Below, in pieces: positions 1 through 64,000 of a stretch of DNA of 64,000 nt. This DNA comes from Lyophyllum atratum (lineage: Eukaryota; Basidiomycota; Agaricomycetes; Agaricales; Lyophyllaceae): positions 62,001 to 126,000 of the forward strand of contig JACGCN010000010.1 of the NCBI GenBank assembly GCA_014905825.1, given 5' to 3'. Every line of letters begins with the position of its first letter. Within the stretch, counting starts at the first letter, position 1. The position numbers and the translations under genes are program-made. The notes under the pieces are model-generated. The model was not told where the DNA came from, did no database searches, and saw nothing but the letters and a program-made list of their open reading frames with translations.

Positions 1-12
1 TAATTCTCCGAC

Positions 13-344
13 ATTTTTGATTCGCAGCAGGGTCGGAGAGACACAACGCTGACTGCACATGGAGAGGATGGAGCTGAAGGCCTTCGGTGTGTACAACCGC
101 GGGCGACTTGTCGTAGATGGGAGATGGTGGGATGTGATAATAGTTAAAACAGACTGGGATGAACAACTGAACGAAGGCGCAGATCATCACGAATCCCCAC
201 GTCGCAAGCAATATTTCTGTGTTTCCCGCTGGAAGGGAGCAGGAGAAGATAAGACGGCCGGTGCCAAAGTCAAGCAGGGCGCACCGAGACGTTCCCCCCA
301 CCAGATGAAACGGGGCATTCCACACTCTCGCTAAAATACCTATC
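13..344 (-). other. possible exon of a membrane protein, cut by window start
   Basis: Read on the minus strand, this stretch directly downstream of the metallophosphoesterase stop is open for over 100 codons. It contains a hydrophobic run, TWGFVMICAFVQLFIPVCF, that could span a membrane. No ATG or family signature was recognised, and the stretch runs to the window edge. The same DNA recurs inverted at about 20.67-21.02 kb, where this frame carries stops, so the copy here is the better preserved one. It could be the last exon of a gene starting outside the window, or chance open frame. Low certainty. Confidence 0.25.
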
Positions 345-1686
345 TCAGTCCCGCAAATCGACGACTACAGCCTGAAATCCCGGGCCCCCAAACGGCACCC
401 GGTGCGTCCCCCGCCACGCCCCCCGCCCCGCCGGGAATGTCGCCGCATTGACAAATACTGTCTCCTCCGCCGCCACGTCCGCATCCATGTCCATTCCTCC
501 CGTTCCTCCCGCCCCCACTTCCTCTACAAAGGGCACATCCAGATCCGTAAAGTCGTCGTCTGCTTCATGGTTCTTGTTCTGGATGACTGGCGGTTCCGAC
601 GCACCGGCGCCATCCCAAGCGTGTACAGTGGCACCGCGGGCCTCGTGGATGTGGCCGAAGAGATGGATGCGGGGGCGGAGAGTGGGGAGACGGGCACGGA
701 GGGCTTCGCAGCCTGCGAGGTTGCCTCCACGGGTGATGTCAAATATACCGGAGGGAGGGCCGTGTGTTAATCTGTTGAAGGGTGATGTCAGTGGGGGGTC
801 GAAAGGTGGAAAGAGGATATGGGAGAAGGAGGAGAGGTAAACCAAGGTACCCCATCGACGTAGCTACAGATGAAAAGAACCGAAAAACGTACAATATGTC
901 GGTCTTGGGAAACTTCTCGACAAGAGCTGCGTATTAGAAATGCATCAACGGCCTAGTGCAGTGAATGTTACAATGTATTCATACCTTCACCCTCGTCGCG
1001 GGGATAATTGAACGCCCAGTCGTAGAAGTAAGGCGACCACTGGTGAGGTATGGATCAACACAAGAACCATGCGCTATCGTAAACGGGAGCCGCACCGGCG
1101 AGCCATAAATACTCCACGTCCGTCCATCGGGCTTCGTTTGAAAGGTGTGTGAAGAGTCTTGCAAATAGACTAGGCCGGCTGCCTGAGCGCGAGATCCAAC
1201 GAGGAGCTCAAGGATCGATGCCACGTCCTATAGGAGGTGTACATATTCAGCATTACGAAAACATGGAGGATGACGAGGACATACCTGTTTCCCGATATCT
1301 CGATGCCATTTCATGTGGGTGTGCTCATACCAGTCGGATTGCAAAGTAAGGTCATGGTTGCCTGCGATAATTCTGTACAAACAGCTCAGGCGGGCGTTAC
1401 GACACGGCAGCAAATGAACTCACATCTTGACCTTGTGTGGAAGGGAATACAGCCACTCCATCGTCTTCTCAAATTCGGCTAGTGTGCCGCGGTTTGTAAG
1501 ATCGCCACTGTGCAGCAGCACATCGCCATCAGGCACGTTGAAGGAGCGGGTGTGGGTGTCACTTATGCAGACGAAACGCGTCCATGCTGGAGATGGGACT
1601 GGTGGGAGCGTTTCGGGGTCGTACTCAGCATAGACAACGGAGGCGGGGGTGGTGATGGTGCAGGATGTATATTGAACCGCCGTCAT
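345..1686 (-). CDS. calcineurin-like metallophosphoesterase (MPPED/UPF0046-like)
   Basis: Predicted dinuclear-metal phosphoesterase of the MPPED1/MPPED2 type; the substrate is unknown. Six exons (1686-1424, 1372-1285, 1227-1096, 1039-985, 926-893, 771-345) join in frame to 332 residues, and all introns are GT-AG of 44-121 nt. Metal-binding motifs appear in the expected order: SDTH near residue 45, GDLTNRG near 61, GNHDLT near 92, the family signature WAFNYPR near 165, LTHGPPSGI near 192 and GHIHEA near 227. The length is normal for the family. The start is the first ATG, just before the conserved core. The gene is transcribed leftward. A decayed inverted copy of it lies at 18.4-20.7 kb. The family assignment is firm; the physiological role is not. 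Confidence 0.93.
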
Positions 1687-17678: not shown

Positions 17679-18169
17679 CTACCCTATTCGGATGAGAAAT
17701 TGACGCAAAAGCTGATTTGCCTTTGCAGTGTTTTTCGGGAAAATCTTGCCCGTTTTCCTGATATACTTCCCCAACGCCGTCGCGTTGTAGAACACGCCAA
17801 TCGTCATGACACACCCCGTCGACGCCGCGTCAACGAGGTCCACGATGTTCACGAACGTGCCCTTGAGCGCCTGGCTCTCGATGAGTTATTGCGGAAGAGG
17901 CAAAATCTGTTGGAACTCACCGCCTTGCATTTCTTGATGCTAGTGAGGGTCTCAGCGCCTTCTATCCCCACCGTCCAGCATATATCCTTCCACGACTGGA
18001 GGGAGCTGACGTTCCCGCCGAATTGGGTGGCGAACCCGCTTTGGACCGCACCCACGATGAACTCGCGCCGGCGCGTCTTGTATTGCTGGGATTTTTTTGT
18101 GAGGCCTTCGGAGAGGGCGAGCGCTCTGAAGCGGTCGATGATGGACGCTGTGTCGTCGTTGGCTGACAT
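17679..18169 (-). CDS. conserved fungal small protein, paralogue of 30149-30650
   Basis: Two exons joined at SIKKCKA / ALKGTFVNIVDLVD give about 145 residues. Recognisable blocks are RFRALALSEGLTKKSQQYK, FGGNVSSLQSWKDICWTVGI and GKYIRKTGKIFPKN, ending LLRQFLIRIG. I know this block pattern from unnamed basidiomycete proteins but cannot assign a domain or function. There is no signal peptide or membrane segment; it is basic and predicted helical. The gene at 30149-30650 shares the same exon boundary and nearly every block, so the two arose by duplication. The start is the only ATG upstream of the conserved IIDRF segment. Confidence 0.75.
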
Positions 18170-18399: not shown

Positions 18400-18592
18400 T
18401 CAGGACAATCCTGATCGTCGACGGGCGGGTTTCTCGGTCAGGAAGTATGTTCGTTCTGTACTCCTTCGGTTCCAATGTTGCTTTTACCTAACTCGTCGTC
18501 GCCTTACGTTTTCGACTGGGCGTTCAGTCATCCTCGCGACCAGGGTCAAGGTATGCAGACATTACAATCTCCAATGCGCTAGGTCGTCGGAC
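18400..18592 (+). pseudogene. decayed metallophosphoesterase fragment (exon 4 and flanking introns)
   Basis: The plus strand near 18510-18560 reads SPY-FDWAF-HPRDQGQG, closely matching exon 4 (WAFNYPRDEGEG) of the intact gene at 985-1039. The similarity continues through the donor gtatg into about 40 bp of the following intron, and more weakly into the preceding intron. Exon 5 is missing: similarity stops near 18592 and resumes only at about 20285. Confidence 0.7.
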
Positions 18593-18859
18593 GAGTGTCT
18601 ACTACCCAACTCTCATCGCCATCCTTCTCAAGCCTTCCACCCCCAAAGAAATACGAAGAAGTCGAAATGAATAAATAATTATGTCTGGATCGTGCGTCCT
18701 CCGCCGAATGCCTGGCACGGTATGACAAATGCTGATGTGTTGGATAATAATGATATTGGTGTCTTTTGACCTGGTCAGCCAGTGACTGGAAGAAGAACCG
18801 GTCCGAGTCAGACTCACAAAGTTCGATGCAATGGTAGACCAGGCAGTTGCGCGAGTATC

Positions 18860-18964
18860 TCAAGCTACAACGCAGTAAACGGTGTTGCCAGTTCCGCCGC
18901 TCTCCTCCTCTTTGGGGATGGTAGCGACGTCCTGAAAGGCTGTGATGGTGGTGAAAGAGTCCAT
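18860..18964 (-). CDS. lipopeptide mating-pheromone precursor (CaaX)
   Basis: A 34-residue precursor with the features of basidiomycete B-locus pheromones. The N-terminus MDSFTTI matches the MDxFTT start common in this family, the middle is acidic (KEEES), and the C-terminus GNTVYCVVA ends in a perfect CaaX box directly before the stop. Known family members are farnesylated on the cysteine, trimmed of VVA, methylated and cut N-terminally at an E-R/E-S type site; here EEES is the likely cut region, giving a mature peptide of about 10-13 residues. It acts on STE3-type receptors, none of which is visible in this window. A TATA-like box lies about 90 bp upstream. It is much shorter than usual gene-finder limits. 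A truncated relative lies at 20205-20279. Confidence 0.85.
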   Translation of the reverse strand: MDSFTTITAFQDVATIPKEEESGGTGNTVYCVVA

Positions 18965-19055
18965 TGTAGTGAGGATGTGTGAGGGCGGTGAGGGCGGTGC
19001 AGAAGGGCTGTTTGTGGGTTGTAGGAGCCTGAAGAACAAGTCGACTTGGACTCCT

Positions 19056-19063
19056 CCTTTTAT
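19056..19063 (-). promoter_or_regulatory. TATA-like box of the pheromone gene
   Basis: The minus strand reads GCATAAAAGGAGG, with ATAAAAGG at this position, about 92 bp upstream of the pheromone ATG. The spacing fits a short 5' leader. No other candidate lies closer. Confidence 0.45.
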
Positions 19064-19069
19064 GCACAT

Positions 19070-20200
19070 TCAGCATACGCCCAGGCCCCGCCTCCTGCAT
19101 CTTGCATCGCTGAGTATGCTCAATCACGGTGCAGAGCGAGCACGATGACGACTATCCTAATTGTTCTCCTGCGCTTGACCCGTCGGCAAAGCGGATAACC
19201 TTTCCGGGCATGCTGCGAGGAACAAGAAAGACAATAAGCGCAGTGCGCCAGTCCCGTCATCGCGTATTTCAACCCTAAATTGCCGAGCACGAACAAGACA
19301 GGCATGATTTCTAGATCTCCGATCATCAATATCGGATTTGCGTATATTGTGAAGACGCGCGCAGCATCGTCGAAACAAAGCAAGACAGTATATTGGGGGT
19401 GCAGCCCAAGCTCCAGGTCAGCGTGGTTCGTAATCACACAGCAGCAGCCTTGCTCAGAAAGTAGCGTTCATCTGTCTCTGGAGACTTTAGTCGATCTTCA
19501 GAACATACGGGGCTCTCAAAGACAATAAACTCCCATCTCGGGCTGGCAGGACCAATTCAAATACGTCTTCCGGCTTCGTCATCTCAACTTGGCTAAGGCT
19601 GTTCGAATGTTTTACGAGACCGCTGCTCAAGGCGATCCTCTGCAGATTATATCCTCGAATTGTACTACTGACCCCAAATCTCCCCTTACGCATACCTCAA
19701 CGCGTCATCTCATCACCTGCGTTGGGACATATCCCAAAAAGGCTGAATCTCTTTCGAGGCAACGATCACGATAAGCGAGGACCCTATGGTCAACTGCCTT
19801 GTTGCTCCATGTGGTCCATCGCACTTTCCTAAATCTCGCTTCGTCGTTGTCGTTGCTTTGTCGCGTTTACTTTTCTTCCTCAAGAACATTGCTGAAATCA
19901 GTGATGCGCCAAAAGTATTTTTACACGGAAAACGATACATGCAGCCCCAGTTAGAAGCCTAATAATAAGACAATTGAACAACGAAGAGGTCGAAGTGATT
20001 AACATGGTAGATGCAACGCGCGCCCCCGCCCCCAACGTTCCATGCTCGCGGCAGGTAAGTACAGTGTAGACGTCAAATAGTCGTGAATAATGTGTTCTGT
20101 CAGTTGATATCGTCAGTTTATTCAGTAGTAGCGCTACAAGTCATCATCAAAAATGCTCACAGGTGATTAACAAGGGTAGTGGATGGGTCGTTGCGCAAGG
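19070..20200. other. insert between the two pheromone sequences, no other gene recognised
   Basis: Short open frames only. One minus-strand frame at 19120-19437 is hydrophobic (YANPILMIGDLEIMPVLFVL) but fits no receptor signature. No STE3-like transmembrane pattern was found on either strand. Confidence 0.4.
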
Positions 20201-20204
20201 TATC

Positions 20205-20279
20205 TCAAGCGGTAACGCAATAGGTGATGTTGCCAGTTCCACTGCCCTCCCGCTCAGTAGGGACTGAAATATCCTCGAT
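20205..20279 (-). pseudogene. 5'-truncated pheromone precursor
   Basis: The minus strand reads EDISVPTEREGSGTG followed by NITYCVTA and a stop, aligning with the C-terminal two thirds of the pheromone at 18860-18964 (...EEESGGTGNTVYCVVA). It has an intact CaaX box (CVTA) and an E-R processing site. There is no start codon: a TAG sits in frame at 20280-20282, right where similarity to the metallophosphoesterase begins. The MDSFTT end has therefore been lost at the rearrangement junction. An upstream exon spliced to the AG of that TAG is possible but unsupported. Confidence 0.75.
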
Positions 20280-20284
20280 CTACA

Positions 20285-20672
20285 CTTCAACAGATCAACA
20301 CACAGTCCTCCCTCCGGTATACTTGAAACCTCCCGTAGAGGCAACCTCGCAGGCTGCGAAGCCCTCCGTTCCCGTCTTCCCTCTCTCCGCCCGCGCGTCC
20401 AATTCTTCGGCGACATCTAGGAGGCCCGTAGGGCACTATACACGCTCGGGATGGTGCTGGTGCATCAGCGCCGCTAGTCATCCAGTTTCGAGGATCTGGA
20501 TGCAGAGGAAGCCGAGGCCCGCGGAATGGACATGGAAGCAAACGCGAAGATAGAGGAGGCGGTGTTTGTGAATGCGATGACTCTTCCCAGCGCGCAGGGG
20601 CCGTGGCAGGGGTCGCGACAACTGCCGTTTGGCGGGCCGGGGTTTTGGGCTGTAGTCGTCGATTTGCGAGAC
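20285..20672 (+). pseudogene. decayed metallophosphoesterase, last exon
   Basis: The plus strand matches the final exon of the intact gene at 345-771: THSPPSGIL, GNLAGCEALRSRLPSLRPRV and FGDI in place of the metal-binding GHIH, then after a damaged middle EEAVFVNAM, PFGGPGFWAVVVDLRD and a stop. The second histidine motif is destroyed and a stop follows it. The acceptor context ttcaacag is kept at the left end, so the copy came from genomic DNA and not from mRNA. Confidence 0.8.
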
Positions 20673-20911
20673 TGATACAGGTATTTTAGCCAGAGCGTGG
20701 AATGCTTCGTTTCCTTTAGTGGGGTGAACGTCTCGGCGCGCCCTCCTTGACTTTGGCACCGACCCGTCTCGTCTCCTCTGGCTCGCTTGCAGCGAGAAGC
20801 AAAAAAACGTTGCTTGCGACGCGGGGATTCGTGACTCGGAGCCTGCGTTCAGTCGTTCATTCAAGTTTATTTTAACTATCAAAGAAAATAACGTACCACC
20901 ATCTTCCATCT

Positions 20912-21286
20912 ATGACGAGTCGCCCGCGGTTGTACACACCGAAGGCCTTCGGCTCCACCTTCTCCATGTGCAGTAAGCATTGTGTCTCTCCGACCCTGCC
21001 GCGAATCGACAACGTCTAACGATTCTGTGTTGTTGTACCTGTAGTTTCGTTGCAAGGCGACATCGATTTTCAACAGCTCGAGTATGTCAGTGAGATGTGC
21101 TTGGAGGATTGTCCAATGGATGGGCCAGAGCAAGGTGCTTGGGAAACGATGGCGCTGGGAGACATCATAAGAGGGAAACTGAGGGACTGTTACTGTCCGA
21201 AGTCTGTCTCTCTGTGGCCGCAGTTCGAGCTGATGGTTCTGATGATTTTAGAGGGATTCAAAACGCGTGCTTGCATCAACATCTGA
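20912..21286 (+). CDS. possible two-exon small protein
   Basis: An ATG at 20912 (MTSRPRLYTPKAFGSTFSMC) joins by donor gtaagc at 20973 and acceptor ctgtag at 21044 to an open frame ending ACINI at 21286, about 100 residues. The first exon lies in the duplicated segment, and the left-arm copy lacks the ATG. This weakens the case. No family recognised. Confidence 0.22.
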
Positions 21287-30148: not shown

Positions 30149-30650
30149 TTACCCAATCTTTATGAGGAACTGGCGGAGGAGCTTGTTCGCCTTCGCCTTG
30201 TTCTTGGGAAATATCTTCCCCGTATTCCTTATGTACTTACCCAAACGCTTCTCGCTACTGAACACCCCGATCGTCATAACCTTACCGACCGCTGCGGTGT
30301 CGACGAGGTCTACGATGTTCACATACATGCCACTTAGCGCCTACACCAAGCGTTAGCGCCTCAAGAAGGGGACAAAGAAAGAAGCGGGTGCTCACCGCCT
30401 TGCATTGCGTGATGCTCGTTAGATCGTCGGCGCTAGGGATTCCCACCGTCCTGCATAGCTGCTTCCACGACTGGAGGGAGTGTACGTTCCCCCCAAAGGC
30501 GTTCACGAAGCCACTCTCGACTTCGGCTTGTATGAAGTCACGGCGACGGTCTTTGTACTGCTTGGATTTCTTCTTGAGGCCTTCAGAGATCGCAAGTGCG
30601 CTGAAGCGCTGAATGATGGTCGTGGGGCCGTCGTCGTTGAGAGAGGACAT
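30149..30650 (-). CDS. conserved fungal small protein, paralogue of 17679-18169
   Basis: Two exons joined at SITQCKA / ALSGMYVNIVDLVD give about 148 residues. The blocks RFSALAISEGLKKKSKQYK, FGGNVHSLQSWKQLCRTVGI and GKYIRNTGKIFPKN, and the end LLRQFLIKIG, match the gene at 17679-18169 at about two thirds of positions, with the same intron position. The function is unknown. There is no signal peptide or membrane segment. The pair is not tandem; it is separated by 12 kb and several unrelated genes, in the same orientation. Confidence 0.75.
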
Positions 30651-51267: not shown

Positions 51268-52783
51268 CTAAGACTCGGGCATAGCCCAGAACTTCTCCCA
51301 AGGCCACACACTCTTTTCAACCGCGTCACACAGTGCCTGAATCCCCCGCTCGTGCCACCCCTCCAATGGAAGTGCCAGTGCTGCCGTTCTCTGATCCCGC
51401 TCCTCCGGTGTCAGCACGACGTCGAATTCTTGGCCTTGGCCATATAGCCCGTAGCTAACAAAATGTAAATATTGTTCACACTGGGTGCAAATGACAATAT
51501 ATTGATGAGAAAAATCTTGATTATATTGTGAAGGTCCCCTTTATATAATACAACCATGTTGAGCAGTCATATTATGTAGTTATTTTGAATTTCTTTCTAT
51601 TTTGACTATATGAAATATAGTGGACAAATTCATCATATTTTCTGAAAAGAAATCTTGAATACATTCACAATATTTCCAGTGTATAGTTAAGCCATATATT
51701 TTAGGATTAAACTACATTTGTCCTTGATTTTCTCATGACAGATATCATGAAAGTATATTTCATATTGTCAGCATAAATTCTGTGACCAAATTTAGAAAAT
51801 CTTCACCACATTTTCACAATTTGATTGATTGATATTTCAAACAAAATCACAATACTTCAAGTCCATTTTGAGCAATGTTGACAAAAAGGGGCATAAGTGA
51901 TGAGCAGGTGCGAGATATTCTGAATATATTTTGAATTCTTAATCAATTAAATCGTGAAAATATTGGAATTTGTTTTGTTACATTTGGCCACCAAGTTTAT
52001 GCTAAAGATATGATGTATACTTTCATGATATCTGTCATGAGAAAATTCAGAAGAAATATAGTCTATTTCCAAAATATATGGCTCAACTATACACTGGAAA
52101 TATTGTGAATGTATTCAAAATTTCTTTCCAGAAAATATAATGAATTTGTCCACTATATTTCATATGGTCAAAATGGAAAGAAATTCAAAATAATTACACA
52201 ATATAACTGCTGAATATGGTCGTATTATATAAAGGAGACCTTCACAATATAATAAAGATTTTTCCCCTCAATATATGGTCATTTGCACCCAGTGTCACGC
52301 TATTAGGAAACATGAAACTGGGGGGGAGATAAAGGGATGAAGCTCACTACGTCTGGCACAATCAGCATCGACCGTGAGAAGTTCCTCCCAATTCTTGTAC
52401 TCGTCGTTGTCGCTCTCTCCGCCATGGAACGCGCAGAGGAAATAAAACATGTGTCGGACCGTCTTTGAAAGAGTCAGGACAGTCATGTGGGAACACAACA
52501 TGTGACAATTCACCTTTTTTTGGGCTTCCATATGGAATTTGAGCCGCTCAGGGTTCACGTATCGTTCTCCACGGCCCTCATCCACATCGAAGTTGTCGAG
52601 GAGGATGATCGGAAACCGGTCGAACCACAGAGGGAAAAGGAGGTTGAAAAACACTTCCTTTTTGCGCTCCTTACAGGCGCGCCCGTATATAGGGGCAACG
52701 TACTTAAGGAACACGTCTTGTTGAGGCGCCCGGATTGCGTCCCGATCGGTAGCAAAGAGATGAACATTGGGGTTTGGTGTCAT
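51268..52783 (-). CDS. uncharacterised lineage-expanded protein, interrupted by a MITE
   Basis: The minus strand has an exon starting at 52783 after acceptor ccctag (MTPNPNVHLFATDRDAIRAP ... FPLWFDRFPIILLDNFD), a clean intron (gtgaat...ttcaaag) after EAQKK, then TVRHMFYFLCAFHGGESDND to about 52345. After the MITE at 51479-52294 comes a further open stretch, GLYGQGQEFDVVLTPEERDQ to WPWEKFWAMPES-stop at 51268. The FxxLFPLWFDRFP pattern recalls the PxxWFxRWP segment of an unnamed, highly repeated Agaricomycete family. The reading frame across the MITE-bearing stretch could not be made continuous with certainty, so it may be a pseudogene. The 5' end is not resolved. Confidence 0.45.
51479..52294. 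mobile_element. foldback MITE 1 (816 bp, TSD TCA)
   Basis: AT-rich element with about 370-bp terminal inverted repeats and only a short unique centre near 51.87-51.93 kb. The left end CACTGGGTGCAAATGAC is mirrored at the right. The 3-bp direct repeat TCA flanks it (51476-51478 and 52295-52297). The arms agree at roughly nine of ten positions. There is no coding capacity. The 3-bp TNA duplication points to PIF/Harbinger-type mobilisation. Its outer 65 bp resemble those of MITE 3. Confidence 0.88.
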
Positions 52784-55039: not shown

Positions 55040-58000
55040 CGTGTGTGGCTGGGCAACCCCAGATTACCAAACAATCTGATCACAAGATCAAAATATTGAG
55101 GGTGACCATTGCTGCCGACGGCGAGCCCTTGATATGTAAGTTGCCGGAGCCCTTTTGGAATGTTTTAAGCTTACCTTGATGCAGATGGCGCCACCACGGT
55201 GGGCGATCGAAGAGAGCAGACCGACCTTCTGCGCGTATATCTTGATATTTTCATAGAACACCAAAAGAAAAATACAACTGCTGTGTTCTGGCCTATTATA
55301 GAACGCGAATGGTTTGCAAAATGGCCACAAGCGGAATTGGATGGGCATACAACACCCGAACAGTTGTCTGATCATGCAAACACATTGCTCGCGGACCTTG
55401 CTGGATTTAGAAAGGTATGTTTTGGGCTTTCGTTACCTGATGTCATATATGAACTCGTTGCCCACTGCCCAGAGATTCAAGGAGTGGTACAGCAATAACA
55501 GCAAGGCTCGAAAGGTCTCGAAAACTCCGGCCCTTACCTTCCAATTTGATAAACCCAAACCCACGCGCGCCCCACAAGCAATCAAAGTCTACTCGAAGGG
55601 CCACTACAAGGAAAAGGTTAAAGATAGCGTCAAAGCCGAGATGGCGGATAAAGGCATTATCCCCAAGCTCCAGTTGCCAGTGATCAGGTGCCAACTCGCG
55701 GAAGCATTTGCGGCTGAATCGGCGGAGGTCCAGCAAGCTGTCCTTGCGGAGGTCCAAACAGCCAAAGCAACGATGAAGTTGCCTCAGGTTGAACCCACGT
55801 ACACACCGCAAAGTTATGCTGTGTAAGTCCACAAACTTGTCATTGCATTTTTCCTGCTTATGCCTTTCCTTCCAGCGCCATTGATTGTGTTCCCGAAGCT
55901 GCACGGAAATTCATTGATGTGATGAGCTTGCAGACTGGTTGGGTTTGGAGTGTGTTGGGTGGCGGACCGGATCCCGTAAACCACGGCAGGATTCGTACTG
56001 TTGGGTACGTATATCTATTCTACTCTTCTTCTCCACTTCCTGACCGCCATTAAGCTATCACTACGGAAAGAGCCACATTGGCCACTCGTTCAAGGAGGCC
56101 CATGGTACATACAATGATACCATTCAGGAGCCTTACGGTACCTTTGTACAATCTCTATATTGTGAGTGTCTTCTCTTATGCAATCACACAACGTCCTGAT
56201 TTATATCTAGCGGAAAATGTCTGCAATGCAGGTGCTCTGGTTCCTGACCCCAAACTCGGGTCCTACACAATGGACTCGATGGACATAGACTTGCCGGATG
56301 CAGAACCACCAAGTTCTAGTGTTTAAAAGTCCAGTCACCATGACTGAAAATGACTGGACTGTAACTGATCTGTGACTGGTAATGACCGGACTTCCAGTCC
56401 TATCATCCCGGAATGACTGGTGCACCAGTCCAGTTATTTTCATAATCTGGAATTCTGCGTAACTGGAAATGACCGGTCGCGACCGGTTTGTGACCGGTCA
56501 TTTCTATACATACTATATACCTGACACTTCTGGCAGGAACCAATTTTTCCTGGGAAAAACCTATTAGATAAAGGTCTTCTCAGATCTAATTAGTTTTTCC
56601 TGAGATAGATTTCAAGTCTATAGTCTGAACAATAGAATAAAATATTAAACTATTTCCAAAATCCTTCTTGAGAAAGACAAAGCATTTTTCCTACCTTTAT
56701 CTAAAGAAAAAGATAGAATAAAGATGAAGTTTTTCCTATCTTTTTCCAAAGAAAAAGGTAACATTTATCTAGTGTTGGTTAGAAAAACCCTGAGAAAAAG
56801 CGTGATGTAACGGTTTTCTCATGAGATTTCTTTGATAAATGTCACCTTTTTCTTCGGAAGAAGATGGGAAAAACTTTACCTCTTCCCCATCTTTTTCCTG
56901 AGATCAAGGTAGGAAAAAGGCTTTGTGTTTCTTGAGAAGGATTTCAGAAATAGTTTGATATTTTATTCTATTTTTCAGACTATAAACTCGAAATCTATCT
57001 CAGGAAAACCTAATTAAATCTGGGAAGACATTTATCTAATAGGTTTTTCCCAGGAAAAATTGGTTCCTGCCAGAAGTGTGATTATAGCCCCGTTATAGGG
57101 CTTCAACATGACCCTTGGGTCAAATAAATCGGATGAGAACTGAATGTGCTATGGCCAAAACAATTTCGGAACACCGAGTTTGAGTGCAGACTGTACTAAG
57201 CATCTTAATCAGCTCATATCTCAGTCAGATCTTATTGTATTCTCACGGCACAGGGTTCATCCGAAAGGTGGAAGCATACTCTACTGACATATATATCCGG
57301 TTATCACCGGTTATAACCGGCTTAGAACCGGTTTTCGTAAAACCGGTCAAAACCGGTCATAGAACTGATTGTGACTGATGGTGACTGGTCGCCATCAGTT
57401 CAGTTCGGTTTTTTGGAGTTTCAAGCGTCACATGTGACCGGTTACGGTCCGGTCTTGCCTAATTTGGTGAAAAAACCGGACTTGACCTGACTTTAAATCA
57501 CTACCACCAACGCTGGACCTACGAACCTCTCAATGCTCATGTTCGCAGGAGGACGACTCCATGATTGATCCTACCCTGCGGGTACAGTCTTCGTCTTCCC
57601 CTTCCACTGTACCTCGGCCAGCAACCCCCGTCCCATCCTCTGTACCTCGGCCAGCAACTCCTGCCACCGGTGCATCGCCCTCTACGCATCAGCCTCCTCC
57701 ACTGTCGACTGAAGAGCCCGATGTATCGGGGGAAGAATATCTGTTCTCCCGCATCTTCTGCCCAGATGGGACAGAATACCGCTTTCCTGACGACCTCTTC
57801 CATACCTCCCCAATGCCCCCCTCCCCTATATCTGTTCATTCTCCGACCTCGGGTACTCGGCTGCGTTCCCTGTCAGTATCACCAATTCCAGACTTTGAAG
57901 ACCTTGTTGCCAGTCTCGCCAAGCACCCTCTACCCGCACTACCGAAGGCTCCCCCGAAAGCCAAGGCCAAAGTTCAAAAGGCATCGAAGGTCCCCCTGTT

Positions 58001-60643: not shown

Positions 60644-63600
60644 CTACCGGTGGCAGGGACATGGCGAAGGGGAAAAGGACAATTTAACCCGAACCATTCC
60701 TTGCCAACCAGGTTGTAAGTGCCGCGTTGTTGCGCATTTCCGTGCCTGCGAGCCATCGGTCATGTTCCGGTCCATAACCGCTGTAACGGACAAGGTATTG
60801 GACACCTCTCCCGCGTTTTCGCTCGCGATGATGCTGTCGACGAACCACTCTTCTTGGCCGTCCTCTGTCAAAACCGGCTCCGGCTGAGCGAATTCGCGTG
60901 AGGGGAAAAGATTGCTGTCGTTTTCCTTGAAGGGAAGAACCTGCGAGGTGTGAAAGGTGTTGTAAGTTTTAGGACTGTTAGGCATGTCAATTGTAACCGT
61001 TGATGCTTCTGGGTTGATCCCTGTGATGGTGTAAGGACCGTCGAACCGAGGCATGAATTTTGCCACTCTGTTTTCGCCTTTTTTCTTGTATGAATTCCGA
61101 CGGTCTTCCGTTGATAGGCGTACTCGGCCACCGACTTCGAACGGGAATTCATCTCGGCGTTTGTTATTAGCCTGCGCTGCTTGTTGAATTTTCGCTTGCA
61201 TTAAGTTATCTTGAGCAGCCATAGTATCAGCACGCAGCCTTTCAATGACCTCGCGCGCACAAATTTCCTCGGCTTCCGCGTCCCGCGCCACGGGGATTAG
61301 CGGTGGGATGATACGCGGGCTTCGACCCATCCGCAATTCGAACGGTGAGAATCCTGTCGATTTGTTTACGGTGTTCATGAGATCGAAACGCACGCGACCG
61401 AGAGCACGGCGCCAGCCATGTTGATTACGATCCACATGAAAACGCAACGCTTGGTTGATTGTCTTGTTTGAACGCTCACTCGCGCCGTCAGTTTCGGGAT
61501 GATAAGACGACGACATTTTCATTTTTACTCCAACCAGCTTCGACAGATGTTTCCAAAATTTTGAGACGAACAGCTTGTCGCGGTCGCAGACGATGTTAGA
61601 CGGCAACCCATTTTCACAATACCAATGTTCGAAGAAGAGTTCAGCGAGCATCGCAGCGGTCACGTCAGTAGTCGTCGGTACCAGGCGAATATCAGAATGT
61701 AAACGGTCCGTGATAGTCAGCAAGTAATTTGCACCGTCGTCGTCGGGTAGAGGACCGATGAAATCCATGGCCACGGACTCACCGCGACCATCAGGTATTG
61801 GCAATGGATGAAGAGGACCAAGCGGCGCCTTAGTCGTTGATTTAAAACGTTGACATTCGCGGCATGCCGGGATATAACCGTATTCCAAATCCCGTCTCAT
61901 CTTCGGCCAATAATAAGCCGCGCGAATCGCGGCATACGATTTTTCAAAACCAAAATGTCCCAGGGAATCGTGCGCTAGTCTGAATATCGTTTCGCGTACA
62001 GTGCCCACGCGAGGAACGACGAGACGTGTACCAAGGAACCACAACTCGTTGACGCAAGTCAGGTTAGTCATCCCAGGTGCGGCAGCGATCAGATTCTTGC
62101 ACCAAGGGTCTTTAGCGTAGCCGGCAATGATGTCTTTCACGATAGTCGGGTCAACAGTTGGTGTTACAGAGGTTGTCGGCGGGTCCAGCGCGGCGACACG
62201 GTGCGCTAGAGCATGTGCCGATGCAAACGGTGATGAGGAACGCGACACGGGCAGAACAGCGTTAATGCAATGAGTAACAAGGTCATCATCATGCATGTCG
62301 GCGAACAGGGCGGCTTCAGCAACGGCAGCAGCACTGTCAAGAGCGTCGTCACCAGGAAGGCGCGACAAGGCGTCAGCCACAGTGTTATCCTCACCTTTGA
62401 CATATACAATTTTGCAGTCGAACTGCGACATAAACTCTGTCCACCGAGCCTGACGGCGGGAAAGATCGCGCTGTTTGTGGAAATTTTCGAGTGTGCGGTG
62501 ATCGGTGAAGACGACGAACTGAGTGCCGAACAAATCAGCTCGCCATTTGCGCAAGGCTCGGATGATGGACAGCATTTCTTTCTCATGCACAGGGTAATTC
62601 AGCTCCGCTCCCTTGAAGGTTGAGGAATCGAACGCAACTGGACGAGCGGTCTCCCAACTATCGCCAAATGACAGAACAGCACCAGAACGTCTGTCGCTTG
62701 CGTCGCAGGTCACAAAAATTGTTTTCGATTTGTCGTCGTGGTCGATTGTGGTTAAGCACTCGCGACTCACAACGATTTTTTTGATGGCATCCAGAGCGCG
62801 TGGGTGACAAGGCAGCCACTCAGGAAAGGAAGTGTCACATTCTTTCCGAGTCAGTTCAGTCAAGATGTCGGTGTGGTCCGCGAGATGAGGCAAAAAGGCA
62901 GCGATATAACGGACCAGTCCCAGAAAGGAGCGAACGTCGGTTGAAGATTTAGGAGTGGGCCAGTTCAGAATGCGATCGACCTTGCGTCCGTCGGCCTCAA
63001 TACCAGCAGCGGATATGTGGTGACCCAAAAAATCGATCGACGTGCAATACAGGTTCGTTTTAGCCGGATTGACGTATAACTGTGCGGCTCGGAGAGCCTC
63101 CAATATTTTACGGACGTTGATGTGATGTTCTTCGAGTGTCTGCGAATATATGACGATATCATCCAGGTAAACATGGCATATTTTACACAAGGTGCCAAGG
63201 ACAGTATTTTGATAAAACAAAGCCTGAAGATATTGTGAAGGTGCTCTTTGCGCAACACCACTATGATAAGTGAACATATAGTAAAGCAAATTTTGTATTT
63301 TGTTGAAAATCATAGTGTGAACAAATTCAGAATTTATTCCCTAAAGAAATGTAAAAAAACATCCACAATATTTTTACAATATGATCAGTGAACACTTCAT
63401 AATATGTACACAATATAGTGAGGTATTCCAGACTATGGTGAAGATATGGTGAAAATATTTTGACTACCTGACTATATTGTGAACATATTATAAAATCTTC
63501 ACTGATTATATTGTGAAAACATTGTGAAGGTTTCTTACATATCTTTAGAGAATGAATTCTGAATTTGTTCACACTATGATTTTCAATAAAATACAGAATT

Positions 63601-64000
63601 GGGCCTATCATATGTTCATTGATCATAGTGTTATCACACAAAGAGCACCTTCACAATATTTTCAGGCTTTGTCTCATCAAAATATTGTCCTGGGCACCTT
63701 GTGTTACCGATGTAGTCCCTCAACGCTGTCGAGACTCGGCGCTGATGAATCGCGGGCGCATTCCGAAGTCCCATGGGCATAACCAACCACTCGAAAAGTC
63801 CGAAGGGCATCGAAACAGCTGTCAGGTGGACGTGATCAGGGTGCATAGGCGTCTGGAAAAACGAATTTGTCATGTCTATAGTTGAGAAGAACTTGCCCTT
63901 CCCGCAGTCATGCAGAATGTCATCGACACGGGGCAACGGGTGATTATCGGGAACAGTGTTTGCGTTCAATTCGCGATAGTCGTTCACCCAACGAGGGAGA
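60644..64000 (-). pseudogene. Ty3/gypsy chromovirus Pol, 5' part beyond window, disrupted
   Basis: Minus strand, from the window end: reverse transcriptase ([55 protein letters not shown]), then MITE 3, then CHVYLDDIVIYSQ with the catalytic YLDD. RNase H follows (FVTCDASDRRSGAVLSF, ELNYPVHEKEMLSII, VFTDHRTLENF). Integrase comes next, with an HHCC zinc finger (H...LGHFG..., CRECQRF) and the D-D-E core (AMDFIGPLP, NIVCDRDKLF, SSSYHPETDGASERSN). A GPY/F-like region (RFDGPYTI) precedes a chromodomain. The main frame stops at 60644, but the chromodomain (GVQYLVRYSGYGPEHDRW) lies in the neighbouring frame, ending at 60684. A 1-nt loss in the run at 60816-60819 explains this. The two lesions make this copy non-autonomous. 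Confidence 0.93.
63186..63703. mobile_element. foldback MITE 3 (518 bp, TSD TAA/TTA) inside reverse transcriptase
   Basis: Palindromic AT-rich element with ends CACAAGGTGCC mirrored at both sides, arms of about 240 bp, and duplicated TTA on the plus strand (63183-63185 and 63704-63706). Removing it and one TAA copy rejoins the host frame exactly at RDYIG / KICHVYLDD, which proves the borders. Outer sequence (GACAATAT, TTGATGAGA, ATATTGTGAAGGT, CTCTTT) is shared with MITE 1. No coding capacity. Confidence 0.93.

What the first reader, a model, noticed from the sequence alone, without database searches (positions are those of the whole stretch)
18860..20279. Intact and truncated CaaX pheromone genes in a 1.7-kb insert
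A 34-codon gene with MDSFTT start and YCVVA end, plus a headless relative ending YCVTA 1.2 kb away, is the signature of a basidiomycete pheromone (B mating-type) locus or one of its dispersed copies. Such genes are usually missed by annotation. No STE3 receptor is visible within the window, so this may be the edge of the B locus, a detached pheromone gene, or a non-mating pheromone. The differing tails (GNTVYC against GNITYC) suggest different receptor specificity before decay.
Basis: partly seen in the sequence, partly recalled or inferred. Interest (0 to 1): 0.85.

Follow-up and report, generated by a model that had tools for sequence, protein, structure and literature searches.

The report
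Dispersed non-mating mushroom pheromone gene
A tiny pheromone gene in a mushroom genome, copied out of a small gene cluster and far from the mating locus, makes a peptide that looks identical in both nuclei; some of its relatives carry two pheromone units in one protein, which suggests a shared "self" signal rather than a mate-choice signal.

Summary
Window 18860-18964 (-) encodes MDSFTTITAFQDVATIPKEEESGGTGNTVYCVVA; a headless copy lies at 20205-20279 (-). Both sit in a ~1.66-kb segment (18622-20279), ~92% identical to part of an intact three-gene pheromone cluster (C60/C70). Its breakpoint falls inside one of those genes, which explains the headless copy. The presumed other haplotype (C119) carries it too. 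No STE3 match is listed on either contig. The mature part differs at 0/54 nt between haplotypes, against 9/54 in the dead neighbour; nine allelic pairs of dispersed genes show 10 synonymous and 0 nonsynonymous changes in the pheromone units. [quoted passage not shown] The family also includes precursors with two units in one ORF: 72 of 103 database hits, 44 of those 72 with identical unit cores (at most 6 when re-paired). My searches found no description of these in mushrooms, but three primary sources were not held and one was not looked up. The window gene is a new member of a known kind; its two-unit relatives are a candidate new variant. Expression, secretion and receptor are untested.

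The parts
18860..18964 (-). intact single-unit pheromone-precursor CDS, MDSFTTITAFQDVATIPKEEESGGTGNTVYCVVA
   Evidence: last 54 nt identical to the C119 copy
19058..19064 (-). TATA-like CATAAAA, 100 nt upstream of the ATG, present in all four copies (C2, C119, C60, C70)
   Evidence: [TC]ATA[AT]AA upstream of 5 of 9 dispersed genes, background 5%
19159..19165 (-). upstream motif AACAATT (RACAATT) at -201
   Evidence: RACAATT in 6 of 9 dispersed genes, RACAAT in 7 of 9; RACAAT in 5 of 5 B-locus pheromone genes
20205..20279 (-). headless pheromone-gene remnant (last 24 codons plus stop), cut at the duplication breakpoint
   Evidence: source gene intact at C60:638638-638745 and C70:112893-113000
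18622..20279 (.). segmental duplicate (~1.66 kb) of part of the C60/C70 pheromone cluster; also present on C119
18485..18613 (+). left flank: one part of a decayed duplicate of the sequence at window 10-1050 (-)
   Evidence: 76% over 129 columns
20282..21016 (+). right flank: other part of the same duplicate, with an in-frame stop
   Evidence: 77% over 783 columns
10..1050 (-). paralogous copy without the insert (139 bp between its two matching blocks not aligned)

Best explanation
The window gene is a working, dispersed non-mating-type pheromone-like gene of a dikaryotic agaricomycete. Supported by sequence: a ~1.66-kb piece of a three-gene pheromone cluster (C60/C70) was copied into a decayed duplicate on the C2/C119 chromosome; both presumed haplotypes share the breakpoints. 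The copy kept one whole gene with its upstream region and cut off the head of its neighbour. Selection keeps the mature part of the peptide the same in both haplotypes, while the pro-region drifts. Inferred: the precursor is farnesylated at YCVVA, trimmed of VVA, carboxymethylated, cut near the acidic KEEE stretch and exported as a roughly 10-12-residue glycine-rich lipopeptide (about SGGTGNTVYC-farnesyl). It would act as a species-wide or self signal at a non-mating STE3 receptor, with the several dispersed genes adding dosage. Some family members pack two units in one precursor; there the internal unit would be released by a cut just before the basic residue that follows C-V-V-F-A.
For: Family: protein and DNA matches to unlinked paralogues; PF08015 above cut-off for 4 of 7 other own precursors scanned. 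The core GGTGNTVYC resembles the published non-mating-type consensus GGGSGNGAYC (C. cinerea) and GGGSGNNAYC (L. bicolor) (PMC8305134, passage). Selection: last 54 nt differ 0/54 between C2 and C119 in the intact gene and 9/54 in the headless neighbour, Fisher p=0.0027. Nine allelic pairs of dispersed genes give 10 synonymous and 0 nonsynonymous changes in the units (128.7 S sites, 402.3 N sites, p=5e-7). Regulation: RACAAT lies upstream of 7 of 9 dispersed genes and, as a held-out set, 5 of 5 B-locus pheromone genes (1 of 4000 Markov-sampled sets reached five). Two-unit relatives: in two genes, on both haplotypes, the units differ by 5-7 synonymous and 0 nonsynonymous changes; 44 of 72 complete two-unit homologues have identical 10-residue cores, at most 6 in 2000 re-pairings. 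After internal C..F[AS] the next residue is K, R or H in 43 of 43.
Against: No transcript, peptide or receptor data were available. The window peptide fails the Pfam cut-off (16.8 against 22 bits). The pro-region of the intact gene diverges about as fast as the dead copy (7/51 nt, four changed residues), so only half of this gene shows constraint, and the single-locus test rests on 54 nt. Raw coding identity does not exceed that of the flanks at every locus (C24q/C81q: 5/54 in the last unit against 11/300 upstream; the changes in the units are synonymous). One B-locus pheromone is also identical in both haplotypes, so monomorphism alone does not prove a non-mating role. ACAAAG, which contains the smut element CAAAG, is not enriched (1 of 9). 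RACAAT was picked after looking at the dispersed set, and in 3 of 5 B-locus genes it also occurs on the other strand. Three of seven own two-unit sequences (C130p, C130q, C95q) have 2-4 nonsynonymous differences between units, and 28 of 72 homologues are not identical in the core.
Confidence: 0.68

Rival explanations
1. A detached mating pheromone: the gene still helps to set B mating specificity although it lies outside the locus.
For: Same precursor layout and RACAAT element as the B-locus pheromone genes. One B-locus pheromone is also shared by both haplotypes.
Against: No STE3 match listed on C2 or C119; mature part identical in both haplotypes of the dikaryon, where a mating pheromone would be expected to differ; glycine-rich core of the non-mating type.
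Confidence: 0.12
2. A relic: a dispersed copy still open by chance and not expressed, like its headless neighbour.
For: It lies in a segmental duplicate inside a decayed gene; the neighbour is dead; the pro-region drifts.
Against: 0/54 against 9/54 nt differences in the mature part; upstream region with TATA-like and RACAATT motifs kept.
Confidence: 0.15
3. A prenylated intracellular micro-protein or a chance CaaX frame, not a secreted signal.
For: Secretion and processing cannot be tested here; Pfam is below cut-off for this copy.
Against: Similarity to precursors that pass the pheromone cut-off in the same genome; repetition of just the mature unit in two-unit relatives makes sense for a released peptide.
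Confidence: 0.05

Closest known systems
[quoted passage not shown] cinerea, L. bicolor, A. bisporus, P. cinnabarinus; PMC8305134 and PMC4101180, passages seen)
   Same: Short CaaX precursor with MD.F start, acidic processing region, glycine-rich GG.GN..YC core, located away from the B locus
   Different: Here their constancy between haplotypes is measured, one copy is seen in a segmental duplicate, and some members have two units in one precursor
B mating-type pheromones of the same genome (C61, C96/C24)
   Same: Precursor layout, CaaX box, upstream RACAAT
   Different: Near STE3 genes; tails such as NPIAFCVIA and TFCTIA on one haplotype, NPLAFCVIA and SFCVVA on the other (which are counterparts is inferred); one pheromone is shared
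Rhodotorucine A precursors (Rhodosporidium; described in PMC3068285, passage)
   Same: Several CaaX-like units in tandem in one precursor, as in the two-unit relatives
   Different: The window gene has one unit; the relatives have two, with an internal C..F[AS]-K/R/H spacer in 43 of 72
Trichoderma h-type precursor HPP1 (PMC3068285, abstract and passages)
   Same: Repeated CaaX-like motif in one precursor
   Different: Ascomycete, three copies of a short (LI)GC(TS)VM motif with Kex2 sites; no sequence relation tested here

Membership tests
Agaricomycete a-type (CaaX) pheromone precursors, PF08015 | short ORF with MD[SA]F start and C-terminal CaaX | tested here: met
Agaricomycete a-type (CaaX) pheromone precursors, PF08015 | Pfam score above the curated cut-off | tested here: not met
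   window peptide 16.8 bits against 22; of the 7 other own-genome precursors scanned, 4 pass (28.7-32.1 bits) and 3 fail (16.3-20.6)
Agaricomycete a-type (CaaX) pheromone precursors, PF08015 | charged processing site 10-15 residues before the CaaX box | tested here: met
   KEEE 10-13 residues before the cysteine (sequence); spacing from PMC8686365 and PMC5473757 passages. The pair is EE, not ER/EH
Agaricomycete a-type (CaaX) pheromone precursors, PF08015 | farnesylated and exported | not testable with these tools
   needs peptidomics
B mating-type-specific pheromone | linkage to STE3 receptor genes | tested here: not met
   no STE3 match listed on C2 or C119
B mating-type-specific pheromone | mature peptide differs between the two haplotypes | tested here: not met
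   0/54 nt differences; note that one B-locus pheromone also fails this
[quoted passage not shown]
[quoted passage not shown]
   SGGTGNTVYC against the consensus quoted in PMC8305134; comparison by eye
Multi-unit CaaX precursor (rhodotorucine-like) | two or more units in one ORF | tested here: not met
   window gene has one unit; relatives on C24, C81, C130 and C95 have two

The most novel reading that the evidence does not exclude
Mushrooms, mainly Agaricales, carry a second, non-mating lipopeptide signalling system encoded by dispersed single-unit genes like this one and by two-unit precursors whose two units evolve in lockstep under selection. The internal unit is freed by a cut in front of a basic residue and prenylated on a five-residue C-V-V-F-A end. 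The signal is shared by both nuclei, so it reports self or density rather than mating type.
Probability: 0.4. Interest if true: 0.75.

Novelty: new variant of a known kind. Interest (0 to 1): 0.5.

Why it matters
What the pheromone-like genes and receptors outside mushroom mating loci do is open (PMC8305134 calls the function of the non-mating receptors unknown; passage). Here one insert holds an intact and a dead gene on two haplotypes, a built-in control which indicates that the mature peptide is kept by selection. The absence of amino-acid change between haplotypes points to a common signal, not mate choice. The two-unit relatives give a sharp test: if two units stay alike by selection both are probably used, so an internal CaaX-like unit would have to be released, and probably prenylated, by a route that I have not seen described for mushrooms.

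Tried and rejected
B-locus edge: rejected, no STE3 match listed on either contig. Tail difference as receptor specificity: mostly decay in C2. Transposon insertion: no clear target-site duplication or terminal repeat seen by eye at the breakpoints, and 139 bp of the copy without the insert do not align, so I call it a segmental duplication of unknown mechanism. Naming the interrupted gene: I suspected a metallophosphoesterase from recall, but its C-terminal stretch has no Pfam match and no match to a solved structure, and the genome search with PF00149 does not list the place; left unnamed. ACAAAG as a known-type response element: 1 of 9. Homologue search with the 69-aa open frame: nothing. 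Species: not identified; the named relatives in the first search are Tricholomella and Hypsizygus, the Hypsizygus record having only the first unit complete. Literature: ten searches (of these 30 and 65 were aimed at other points, and 12 and 17 returned no paper) gave no report of two-unit precursors in Agaricomycetes in the listings and passages that I saw. Niculita-Hirzel 2008, James 2013 and PMC5467461 are not held; Kues 2015, seen only as a citation in a passage, was not looked up. PMC9231725 had no passage on the longer prenylation motifs that I looked for; five-residue prenylation is recalled.

Full report
1. What is there. The window is C2:62001-126000 of a 64.8-Mb, 151-contig assembly. 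Many of its loci come in pairs on two contigs, so it looks like both haplotypes of a dikaryon (inference). On the minus strand, 18860-18964 encodes a 34-residue CaaX precursor; 20205-20279 holds a headless relative. Closest copies: C119 (88%), C60 and C70 (91%).

2. How it got there. Window 18622-20279 matches C60:638671-640356 and C70 over its full length. C60 and C70 each hold three intact pheromone-like genes. The match ends inside the first of these, which explains the headless copy. The surrounding sequence, 18485-18613 and 20282-21016, duplicates window 10-1050 (-), which lacks the insert; the right part has an in-frame stop. C119 carries the same insert with the same breakpoints relative to C60. 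In ungapped columns the insert differs by 6.3% between C2 and C119, 7.5% between C2 and C60, 6.9% between C119 and C60 and 4.4% between C60 and C70. The shared breakpoints suggest that the duplication is older than the split of the two haplotypes; the distances alone are too close to settle it.

3. Selection. In the intact gene the last 54 nt are identical between C2 and C119; in the headless copy 9 of the last 54 differ (Fisher p=0.0027). The first 51 nt of the intact gene differ at 7 sites, with four residues changed, so the pro-region drifts. Over nine allelic pairs of dispersed genes (all for which I had both alleles; C130p had none in hand) the pheromone units show 10 synonymous and 0 nonsynonymous changes, the rest of the precursors 17 and 9. 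Two of the nine pairs had no change at all. Raw coding identity is not above that of the flanks at every locus (C24q/C81q).

4. Not a mating-specificity gene. The 41 STE3 match pieces listed lie on C61, C96, C24, C74 and C108, none on C2 or C119. In the B region two receptor pairs are nearly identical between haplotypes (98% and 97%) and one is 74% (seven pairs compared, four without a match). B-locus pheromones on C61 and C96/C24 mostly differ in their tails, but one is the same in both. The two-unit genes on C24 lie about 1.05 Mb from B-locus genes on the same contig, so loose linkage exists for them.

5. Shared control element. RACAAT occurs within 260 nt upstream, in sense, of 7 of 9 dispersed genes (one per gene, of ten distinct genes in hand; the copy on C60b was left out as a duplicate of the window gene); the background in random stretches is 15%. 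The motif was noticed in that set. In five B-locus pheromone genes, not used to find it, it occurs in 5 of 5; 1 of 4000 Markov-sampled sets reached five. Three of the five also have it on the other strand, and the five may not be independent. Binding by an HMG-box factor is suggested from recall.

6. The wider family. On C24, C81, C130 and C95 relatives carry two units in one ORF, such as MDSFTDVAAYIDNIPPTNEEDGGTGNTTYCVVFAKEDLPSNEEDGGTGNTTYCVVA. In C24p/C81p and C24q/C81q the two units differ by 5-7 synonymous and 0 nonsynonymous changes, so selection rather than recent conversion keeps them alike; C130p, C130q and C95q also have 2-4 nonsynonymous changes. A profile of 11 such proteins gave 103 hits (7986 candidates scored): 72 complete two-unit, 22 one-unit and 9 other by a simple pattern. 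The Piloderma hit, counted as one-unit, has a degenerate first unit. Of the 72, 20 carry an organism name: Tricholomella, Tricholoma, Lyophyllum, Sphagnurus, Collybia, Coprinellus, Pholiota, Termitomyces, Hypholoma, Jaapia, Tephrocybe, Candolleomyces, Ephemerocybe and Coprinopsis; by recalled taxonomy all but Jaapia are Agaricales. The profile was built from two-unit proteins, so their share among the hits is biased. Of the 72, 44 have identical 10-residue cores (36 distinct cores); 2000 re-pairings gave at most 6. After an internal C..F[AS] the next residue is K, R or H in 43 of 43; of the other 29, 21 have Q or R after a four-residue box.

7. Comparison with what is known. [quoted passage not shown]), with a core much like this one. 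Overexpression of non-mating receptors brl3 and brl4, not brl1, increased self-avoidance in S. commune (PMC8161036, passages), which fits a self signal. Tandem CaaX-like units are known from rhodotorucine A and Trichoderma HPP1 (PMC3068285, abstract and passages). Two-unit precursors in Agaricales did not turn up in my searches, but the main primary papers could not be read.

8. Verdict. The window gene is a new member of a known kind, with fair evidence that its product is kept by selection. Its two-unit relatives are a candidate new variant, and the novelty rating refers to them. Function as a self signal is an inference.

Noticed in passing
51478-52295, 56524-57079, 63185-63704: Three imperfect palindromes, each 82-84% identical to its own reverse complement over 520-818 bp; the first and third are weakly related.
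   Followed up: partly
60644-63340 (-): Ty3/gypsy-type pol frame (type by recall) with reverse transcriptase, RNase H and integrase matches.
   Followed up: no
17692-18144 and 30162-30619: Direct repeat, 71% identical; one copy lies about 0.5 kb from the pheromone insert.
   Followed up: no
L006, L001 (C24:528-9802) and L008, L002 (C96:326003-335280): The start of C24 appears to repeat the end of C96 across the B locus, probably an assembly overlap of one haplotype.
   Followed up: partly
L004, L005 (C69, C92): A further dispersed pheromone-like gene with an FER processing site and GTGMTTYCVVA tail; coding sequence identical on both contigs.
   Followed up: partly
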